The notes beneath the pieces are model-generated. The model did no database searches, had not been told where the DNA came from, and worked only from the letters and a program-made list of their open reading frames with translations. From the IMG/VR virus record IMGVR_UViG_3300045049_000339, positions 1 to 64,000 of that record: a DNA stretch of 64,000 nucleotides, one strand, 5' to 3'. Made by a program: the position numbers and the translations under genes. This DNA is from a virus. This document shows, piece after piece, positions 54,559-54,705 of this stretch. Numbering within the stretch: position 1 is the stretch's first letter; the number at the start of each line of letters is the position of its first letter.

Positions 54559-54705
54559 GTCTCGGCAAGGCGTTGATCGAAGTGCGCTGTCCCATCAGGA
54601 GACGTCGGTTCGAATCCGACTCAGGGGACTACGATCCCTGGTGGTGTAGTGGAAGCATTGCCTGGTTTCTCAAATCAAGGCAGCGCCCACCGTGCAACGT
54701 CAGAC
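54559..54705 (+). ncRNA. permuted tRNA-like RNA, Glu-type
   Basis: The T-arm GTCGG-TTCGAAT-CCGAC and acceptor 3' strand TCAGGGG-A (54621-54628) lie upstream of the acceptor 5' strand TCCCTGG (54635-54641; pairs 7/7 with two wobbles). The D-arm GTGT...GCAT and an anticodon arm with loop TTCTCAA (anticodon CTC) follow. The linker is 6 bases. Outer strands pair as CGTTG/CAACG, GTG/CAC and GCGCTG/CAGCGC. This is a tRNA with its halves swapped; the new ends lie in the variable region. Confidence 0.65.

What the first reader, a model, noticed from the sequence alone, without database searches (positions are those of the whole stretch)
54559..54705. Independent permuted Glu-type tRNA with a different breakpoint
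Here the new ends lie in the variable region: T-arm and 3' acceptor first, then 5' acceptor, D-arm and a whole anticodon arm (loop TTCTCAA). In the 58.7-59.4 kb copies the ends lie between D-arm and anticodon arm. Outer strands again pair (CGTTG/CAACG, GTG/CAC, GCGCTG/CAGCGC). Two breakpoints suggest permutation arose more than once, or that the family is more diverse.
Basis: seen in the sequence. Interest (0 to 1): 0.85.

Follow-up and report, generated by a model that had tools for sequence, protein, structure and literature searches.

The report
Twin tRNA-mimic RNA beside DUF7873 gene
The supposed shuffled tRNA-Glu gene is one half of a conserved RNA that carries two tRNA-shaped modules and sits next to a protein gene of unknown function in many phages and soil bacteria, so it is probably part of an undescribed RNA-protein partnership rather than a tRNA.

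Summary
The permuted order (T-arm, 3' acceptor, linker, 5' acceptor, D-arm inside a long terminal helix) is real, at 54569-54701. A consensus fold of 39 homologues has 28 of 31 pairs with changes on both sides and 93.5% of cells paired. In it the strand after the D-arm pairs with the strand before the variable region ('stem C', window ATCAGG/CCTGGT): the anticodon stem, opened into the terminal helix as in YrlA Y RNAs. None of 88 homologues has a full anticodon arm on either side. The unit is the second of two tandem tRNA-like units downstream of a DUF7873 (PF25283) gene; the window's first unit has lost its tRNA-like core. Such units follow DUF7873 in 79 of 80 bacterial loci and 9 of 10 phage records examined. 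A covariance model built without the window finds the unit (53.5 bits, E 3.5e-9). Rfam has no family for it: related units score 24-38 bits to YrlA, gathering score 69. Most likely it is a DUF7873-bound tRNA-mimic RNA; the binding is inferred, not shown.

The parts
53584..54336 (+). DUF7873 (PF25283) protein gene, 250 aa, partner gene of the RNA
   Evidence: Pfam E 1.5e-67; homologues stand directly upstream of the RNA in bacteria and phages
54441..54460 (+). leader hairpin H1 (CTCCCGGTTGAGCGACCGGG)
   Evidence: same hairpin, by eye, in L123, L337 and L339 ahead of unit 1; a changed form in L335
54463..54479 (+). leader hairpin H2 (TGCACCCGCAGGGTGCG)
   Evidence: covarying hairpin at the same place in L123, L335, L337, L339, by eye
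54480..54568 (+). remnant of unit 1: tRNA-like core replaced by hairpin 54508-54527; conserved segment AAGCTGAAGCTCTCGCTC at 54531-54548
   Evidence: four relatives carry a full tRNA-like core between the same flanks
54569..54701 (+). unit 2, the finding: permuted tRNA-like unit with terminal helix
   Evidence: covariance model trained without it: 54570-54701, 53.5 bits, E 3.5e-9, full length
54569..54575 (+). stem A, 5' strand (pairs with 54695-54701)
   Evidence: covaries with L123 (by hand) and in A8
54576..54583 (+). conserved internal loop, 5' side ATCGAAGT
   Evidence: ATC[CG]A upstream of the T-arm in 51 of 62 unit-2 sequences
54584..54589 (+). stem B, 5' strand (pairs with 54681-54686)
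   Evidence: 5 of 5 pairs of this helix have both-side changes
54594..54599 (+). stem C, 5' strand ATCAGG (pairs with CCTGGT 54661-54666), in the place of the anticodon stem
   Evidence: 4 of 4 counted pairs have both-side changes, 91.7% of cells paired
54604..54620 (+). T-arm
   Evidence: 5/5 pairs; 100% of cells paired in A8
54621..54641 (+). acceptor hairpin: 3' strand TCAGGGG, loop ACTACGA, 5' strand TCCCTGG
   Evidence: 7 of 7 pairs with both-side changes in A8, 99.6% of cells paired
54644..54658 (+). D-arm
   Evidence: 3 of 3 counted pairs with both-side changes in A8
   Evidence: not conserved
54687..54694 (+). conserved internal loop, 3' side CCACCGTG
   Evidence: ACNGTG in 10 of 62, mostly phage forms; most bacterial copies read AAACGTG
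54695..54701 (+). stem A, 3' strand

Best explanation
The feature is unit 2 of a conserved noncoding RNA made of leader hairpins and two tandem, circularly permuted tRNA-like units, encoded just downstream of and on the same strand as a DUF7873 protein gene. Unit 2 is a tRNA body (acceptor, D-arm, T-arm) whose acceptor ends are joined by a short loop and whose anticodon stem runs on into a terminal helix holding the RNA's own two ends. That helix carries a conserved internal loop (AUCGA on one side, ACNGUG or AAACGUG on the other) between covarying stems A and B. Shown: the architecture, its covariation and the gene linkage. Inferred: DUF7873 binds this RNA, probably at the conserved loop, and the tRNA-like modules recruit or sequester a tRNA-binding protein, as proposed for YrlA with Ro60/Rsr. 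My odds: identity as unit 2 of this RNA 0.95; stable complex with DUF7873 0.65; tRNA-mimic recruitment or decoy function 0.4. As encoded it cannot be charged or decode, having no free CCA end and no anticodon loop.
For: Consensus fold of 39 sequences, 28 of 31 pairs with both-side changes, 0 of 500 shuffles as high. Covariance model without the window finds it at E 3.5e-9 and also finds the untrained unit 2 of Racecar, NiceHouse, Ronaldo and Keelan over full length and Pam2 in part. Units follow DUF7873 on the same strand in 79 of 80 bacterial loci, 76-305 nt from the stop codon, with none elsewhere in the 513,870 bases of those loci, and in 9 of 10 phage records. The upstream gene is DUF7873. 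L417 is the one bacterial locus without a unit.
Against: No binding, expression or function data. The window's unit 1 is broken, so this copy may be decaying. The 80 bacterial loci are the best of 562 relatives and mostly actinobacterial. The minimum-energy fold of the window sequence is not tRNA-like. The DUF7873 model (pLDDT 90.4) has no fold match that points to RNA binding. The 3' half of the internal loop differs between phage and most bacterial copies.
Confidence: 0.65

Rival explanations
1. It is a permuted tRNA-Glu(CUC) gene: the outer helix is cut, the ends are ligated and the linker removed, giving a working tRNA, with the breakpoint in the variable region.
For: T-arm, acceptor and D-arm are sound and a loop TTCTCAA follows the D-arm. 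ARAGORN finds no tRNA-Glu in the whole 107.7-kb record.
Against: 0 of 88 homologues keep a 5/5 anticodon arm on either side; the conserved pairing there is stem C; neither RtcB nor PF09414 RNA ligase was found in the record (the PF09511 search was uninformative); D-arm and acceptor letters differ freely among homologues.
Confidence: 0.03
2. It is an ordinary Ro60-binding Y RNA (YrlA) that lies some kilobases from its cluster.
For: Same topology and tRNA-like core as the four units at 58.7-59.2 kb; Ro60-like gene in the same phage; related units give 24-38 bits to YrlA.
Against: By eye it lacks the terminal-helix letters shared by the phage's Y RNAs (GGGGTA.. / CTTTGATATC). A model of unit 2 matches those Y RNAs only in the core, positions about 38-95 of 135. 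Its fixed partner is DUF7873. The window unit has no YrlA match up to E 10.
Confidence: 0.12
3. The units are processing or stability elements of the DUF7873 transcript, for example cut by tRNA enzymes, with no role as a separate RNA.
For: Always on the same strand and close downstream of the gene; in several phages embedded in tRNA arrays.
Against: Two units, a conserved internal loop and strong covariation of the terminal stems are more than a processing mark needs.
Confidence: 0.17

Closest known systems
YrlA Y RNA (Rfam RF02553) with Ro60/Rsr
   Same: Order T-arm, acceptor, linker, acceptor, D-arm inside a terminal helix in place of the anticodon arm; a protein gene next door
   Different: Partner is DUF7873, not Ro60; different conserved internal loop; two units in tandem; scores far below the family's gathering score or not at all
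Circularly permuted tRNA genes of algae and archaea (recalled, no call)
   Same: 3' half encoded before the 5' half
   Different: Those mature into tRNAs with an anticodon arm; no such arm here
Permuted (two-piece) tmRNA (RF04321)
   Same: tRNA-like domain in permuted order
   Different: No tag reading frame that holds across homologues and no match at the unit
GOLLD and similar large RNAs of phage tRNA arrays (recalled; GOLLD named in passages of PMC9569102)
   Same: Structured RNA lying in tRNA arrays
   Different: No Rfam match of that kind in the loci scanned

Membership tests
YrlA Y RNA (RF02553) | Reaches Rfam gathering score (69 bits) | tested here: not met
   No match for the window unit up to E 10; related units 24-38 bits
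YrlA Y RNA (RF02553) | Permuted T-arm/acceptor/D-arm core closed by a terminal helix | tested here: met
   the unit-2 model also matches the core of the 59-kb Y RNAs
YrlA Y RNA (RF02553) | Gene beside Ro60/Rsr | tested here: inconclusive
   Ro60 gene 4.7 kb away in the window with its own Y RNA cluster; bacterial loci not tested for Ro60
YrlA Y RNA (RF02553) | Binds Ro60 | not testable with these tools
   -
tRNA-Glu | Complete anticodon arm with U33 and CUC anticodon, conserved | tested here: not met
   4/5 pairs in the window, 0 of 88 homologues at 5/5
tRNA-Glu | Recognised by ARAGORN or the Rfam tRNA model at threshold | tested here: not met
   14.8 bits over the T-arm only, gathering 29
Permuted tRNA gene | Processed and ligated into a mature tRNA | not testable with these tools
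   No RtcB or PF09414 ligase found in the phage record; host enzymes unknown
DUF7873-linked twin tRNA-like RNA (defined here) | Unit 2 fold with stems A, B, C and core | tested here: met
   53.5 bits, E 3.5e-9 with a model that lacks the window
DUF7873-linked twin tRNA-like RNA (defined here) | DUF7873 gene directly upstream on the same strand | tested here: met
   53584-54336, E 1.5e-67
DUF7873-linked twin tRNA-like RNA (defined here) | Two complete units downstream of DUF7873 | tested here: not met
   Window has unit 2 only; unit 1 has lost its core. 22 of 80 bacterial loci also gave one unit to the scanner

The most novel reading that the evidence does not exclude
DUF7873 and its twin tRNA-mimic RNA form a second, independent counterpart of the Ro60-Y RNA system: a widespread ribonucleoprotein of actinobacteria and of phages with very different hosts, in which the protein grips a conserved internal loop and two tRNA-shaped arms capture a tRNA-binding enzyme or tRNA-directed nuclease.
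Probability: 0.4. Interest if true: 0.93.

Novelty: new variant of a known kind. Interest (0 to 1): 0.82.

Why it matters
It offers a direct test, in genetically tractable Streptomyces and Gordonia phages, of what tRNA mimics do outside the Ro60 system. It also bears on annotation: such units are missed or called as odd tRNAs.

Tried and rejected
Nucleotide searches with the unit and its surroundings found tRNA fragments and short chance matches in 50,697 phage records, never the unit as a whole. The window's own DUF7873 protein found nothing in IMG/VR; alignment A2 found only the L123 contig; A3 found nothing in genome contigs. The four Stanwilliamsviridae stretches hold normal tRNAs and a few Y-RNA-like units but not this RNA. 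Pattern TGACCGCCTGGANCACC gave 52 stretches; one is the L123 contig, the others were only scanned by script. A coding reading of AAGCTGAARCTC (KLKL-like) was dropped because bacterial copies break it. A tRNA with an intron, made of the 5' half of unit 1 and the 3' half of unit 2 in L123 (Rfam 25 bits), was rejected because each unit pairs better within itself. No defence-system, NCBIfam or convincing solved-structure match for DUF7873. Foldseek had no match at E 0.001 or below in PDB or viral models; the aligner's best row, 3kdq_A (Z 10.5, rmsd 7.2, 146 aligned), is itself of unknown function. Ten proteins around four bacterial loci showed no common theme.

Rows left out: of 50 non-redundant unit-2 candidates, 39 went into A8 and 38 (no window) into A10. 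The 11 left out were seven phage units with long linkers or poor alignment (L343, L346, L347, L348, L349, L350, L352) and L414, L415, L419, L421. Four (L415, L419, L421, L427; probably unit 1) were dropped before the count of 88. In one search, 31 loci were first set aside by a D-arm rule; one search put all but L386 back. The motif counts (ATC[CG]A 51, ACNGTG 10, both 8, of 62) come from the smaller set. Uninterrupted helix length between the strands of stem C is a weak test: 4 or more in 87 of 88, but also in 76% of controls; the covariation counts carry the claim. In A8 the window's strands of stems A and B are misaligned, so those pairs rest on other rows and on the hand alignment. L335's DUF7873 was recognised by eye from its C-terminal letters. 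Unit 1 was not given a covariation test.

Full report
What was checked. The window is part of a 107,716-base phage record (G000) with a Ro60-like gene at 59444-61126 (TROVE domain). The T-arm, both acceptor strands, the D-arm and the outer pairing are there as described. A scanner written for this architecture finds five places in the window; it finds none in 60 random sequences of matched dinucleotide make-up and none of score 11.7 or more in another 60. Four of the five are the YrlA-like units at 58.7-59.2 kb, where Rfam gives weak YrlA matches at two. So the unit is not chance.

A first homologue. The related phage record behind L123 holds, between homologous genes (about 36-40% and 52% identity), an RNA with the same spacing but changed stems. 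Aligned by hand, the window pairs GCGCTG/CAGCGC and CGTTG/CAACG where L123 pairs GACCAG/CTGGTC and CCGTA/TACGG. Between them lie two 8-nt strands that keep most letters: AUCGAnnn and CnACnGUG. L123 has no canonical anticodon arm on either side.

More homologues. A pattern built on that loop and the T-arm gave ten stretches of viral contigs. Four are real by fold and place: the L123 contig and L335, L337, L339; the other six I judged chance. In all four, two permuted units stand in tandem. From these I reached known phages: Gordonia GodonK, Phendrix, Keelan and Ronaldo, Rhodococcus NiceHouse, Arthrobacter Racecar, Pseudanabaena Pam2, Klebsiella FBKp24, Vibrio K479 and Microcoleus My-WqHQDG. The gene upstream is DUF7873, PF25283. 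In 9 of these 10 records the scanner finds one or two units downstream of it. In the tenth, My-WqHQDG, the region holds a HEARO RNA (129.1 bits) and an ORF after it. In Keelan the units lie beyond an intervening tRNA-Thr.

In bacteria. In 79 of 80 a unit follows on the same strand, its T-arm 76-305 nt (median 102) after the stop codon, and no unit occurs elsewhere in those 513,870 bases. The scanner found two units in 57, one in 22 and none in 1, L417.

The fold. RNAalifold on a sequence-only alignment of 39 unit-2 sequences gave terminal stem A with a two-pair inner extension, stem B, stem C, T-stem, acceptor and D-stem; 28 of 31 pairs have changes on both sides. 93.5% of cells pair, against 36.9-47.9% when slid, and none of 500 shuffles reaches the observed covariation. 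The scanner selected for T-stem, acceptor and D-stem pairing, so the independent tests are stems A, B and C, whose main helices pair in 92.3, 82.6 and 91.7% of cells with both-side changes at every pair. Stem C joins the strand before the variable region to the strand after the D-arm, exactly where a tRNA has its anticodon stem. So the break lies in the anticodon arm, as in YrlA. The window alone cannot decide: the two folds tie at about -39.5 kcal/mol, and its minimum-energy fold is something else. A covariance model trained without the window finds the window unit over its full length at E 3.5e-9, and unit 2 of Racecar, NiceHouse, Ronaldo, Keelan and (in part) Pam2, also untrained. It finds the phages' Y RNAs only in the tRNA-like core, model positions about 38-95 of 135. 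FBKp24 and K479 match weakly and in part (32.3 and 20.7 bits), so the proteobacterial forms are the least secure members.

In the window, unit 1 keeps its leader hairpins and the conserved segment AAGCTGAAGCTCTCGCTC, but a plain hairpin (54508-54527) stands where the tRNA-like core should be.

What it does. The acceptor ends are joined by a loop and there is no anticodon loop, so the molecule as encoded cannot be charged or decode. No RtcB or PF09414 ligase was found in the phage record; the PF09511 search was uninformative. A fixed gene partner, a conserved internal loop in a covarying terminal helix and tRNA-like arms are the anatomy of the Ro60-YrlA pair. Passages of PMC7790460 state that Rsr is tethered by Y RNA to PNPase in Deinococcus, and suggest that YrlA's tRNA-like domain could competitively inhibit an anticodon nuclease. 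By analogy I propose that DUF7873 binds the internal loop and the arms bind or sequester a tRNA-binding protein. This step is inference. AlphaFold gives a confident DUF7873 model (mean pLDDT 90.4) but no informative fold match.

Is it known. No Rfam 15 family reaches its threshold on unit 2 of this RNA in the loci scanned; YrlA gives 24-38 bits on some related units and nothing on the window unit. 'DUF7873' occurs in no paper of the held library. Searches for permuted tRNA with phage, tRNA-like noncoding RNA with Streptomyces and phage, Y RNA with phage, and tandem tRNA-like RNA showed nothing of the kind in their listings. The paper that described tRNA-like bacterial Y RNAs (Chen et al. 2014) is not held; I know it from citations seen and from recall. 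bioRxiv and most subscription journals were not searched.

Noticed in passing
A fifth element near 59330-59400 has the same flanking motifs but no tRNA-like core.
   Followed up: partly
window 54350-54432; L123 about 4602-4690: Another structured element between DUF7873 and the twin RNA, with an outer stem that covaries (GGTGCTCC/GGAGCACC against GGTGTTCC/GGAACACC).
   Followed up: partly
window 54531-54548; L123 4734, 4909, 5055: Motif AAGCTGAARCT occurs three times in the L123 RNA cluster (0.01 expected by chance); a related segment follows the D-arm of unit 1 in many homologues. Its role is unexplained.
   Followed up: partly
L123 4768-4905: Unit 1 of this phage carries about 80 nt with two strong hairpins in its acceptor loop.
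   Followed up: no
IMG/VR loci such as L009, L034, L043, L079, L113: Many phage contigs hold permuted tRNA-like units with outer strands like CAGCAA...CCTGTT. Of 60 loci with units, 8 gave a Ro60 hit, 1 a DUF7873 hit and 51 neither, but the loci are at most about 15 kb and the Ro60 queries are actinophage-like.
   Followed up: partly
L351 3441-4952 (Microcoleus phage My-WqHQDG): A HEARO RNA and an ORF after it appear to be inserted in the noncoding stretch downstream of DUF7873.
   Followed up: no
L308 9796-9870; L309 10738-10811; L349 3512-3591: Annotated tRNAs (tRNA-Arg, tRNA-Ser, tRNA-Sup-TTA) overlap permuted tRNA-like units and are probably misannotations.
   Followed up: partly
window 30508, 49764, 49838: T-arms outside any ARAGORN tRNA; the last lies in a sub-threshold tRNA-Sec match at 49790-49861.
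   Followed up: no
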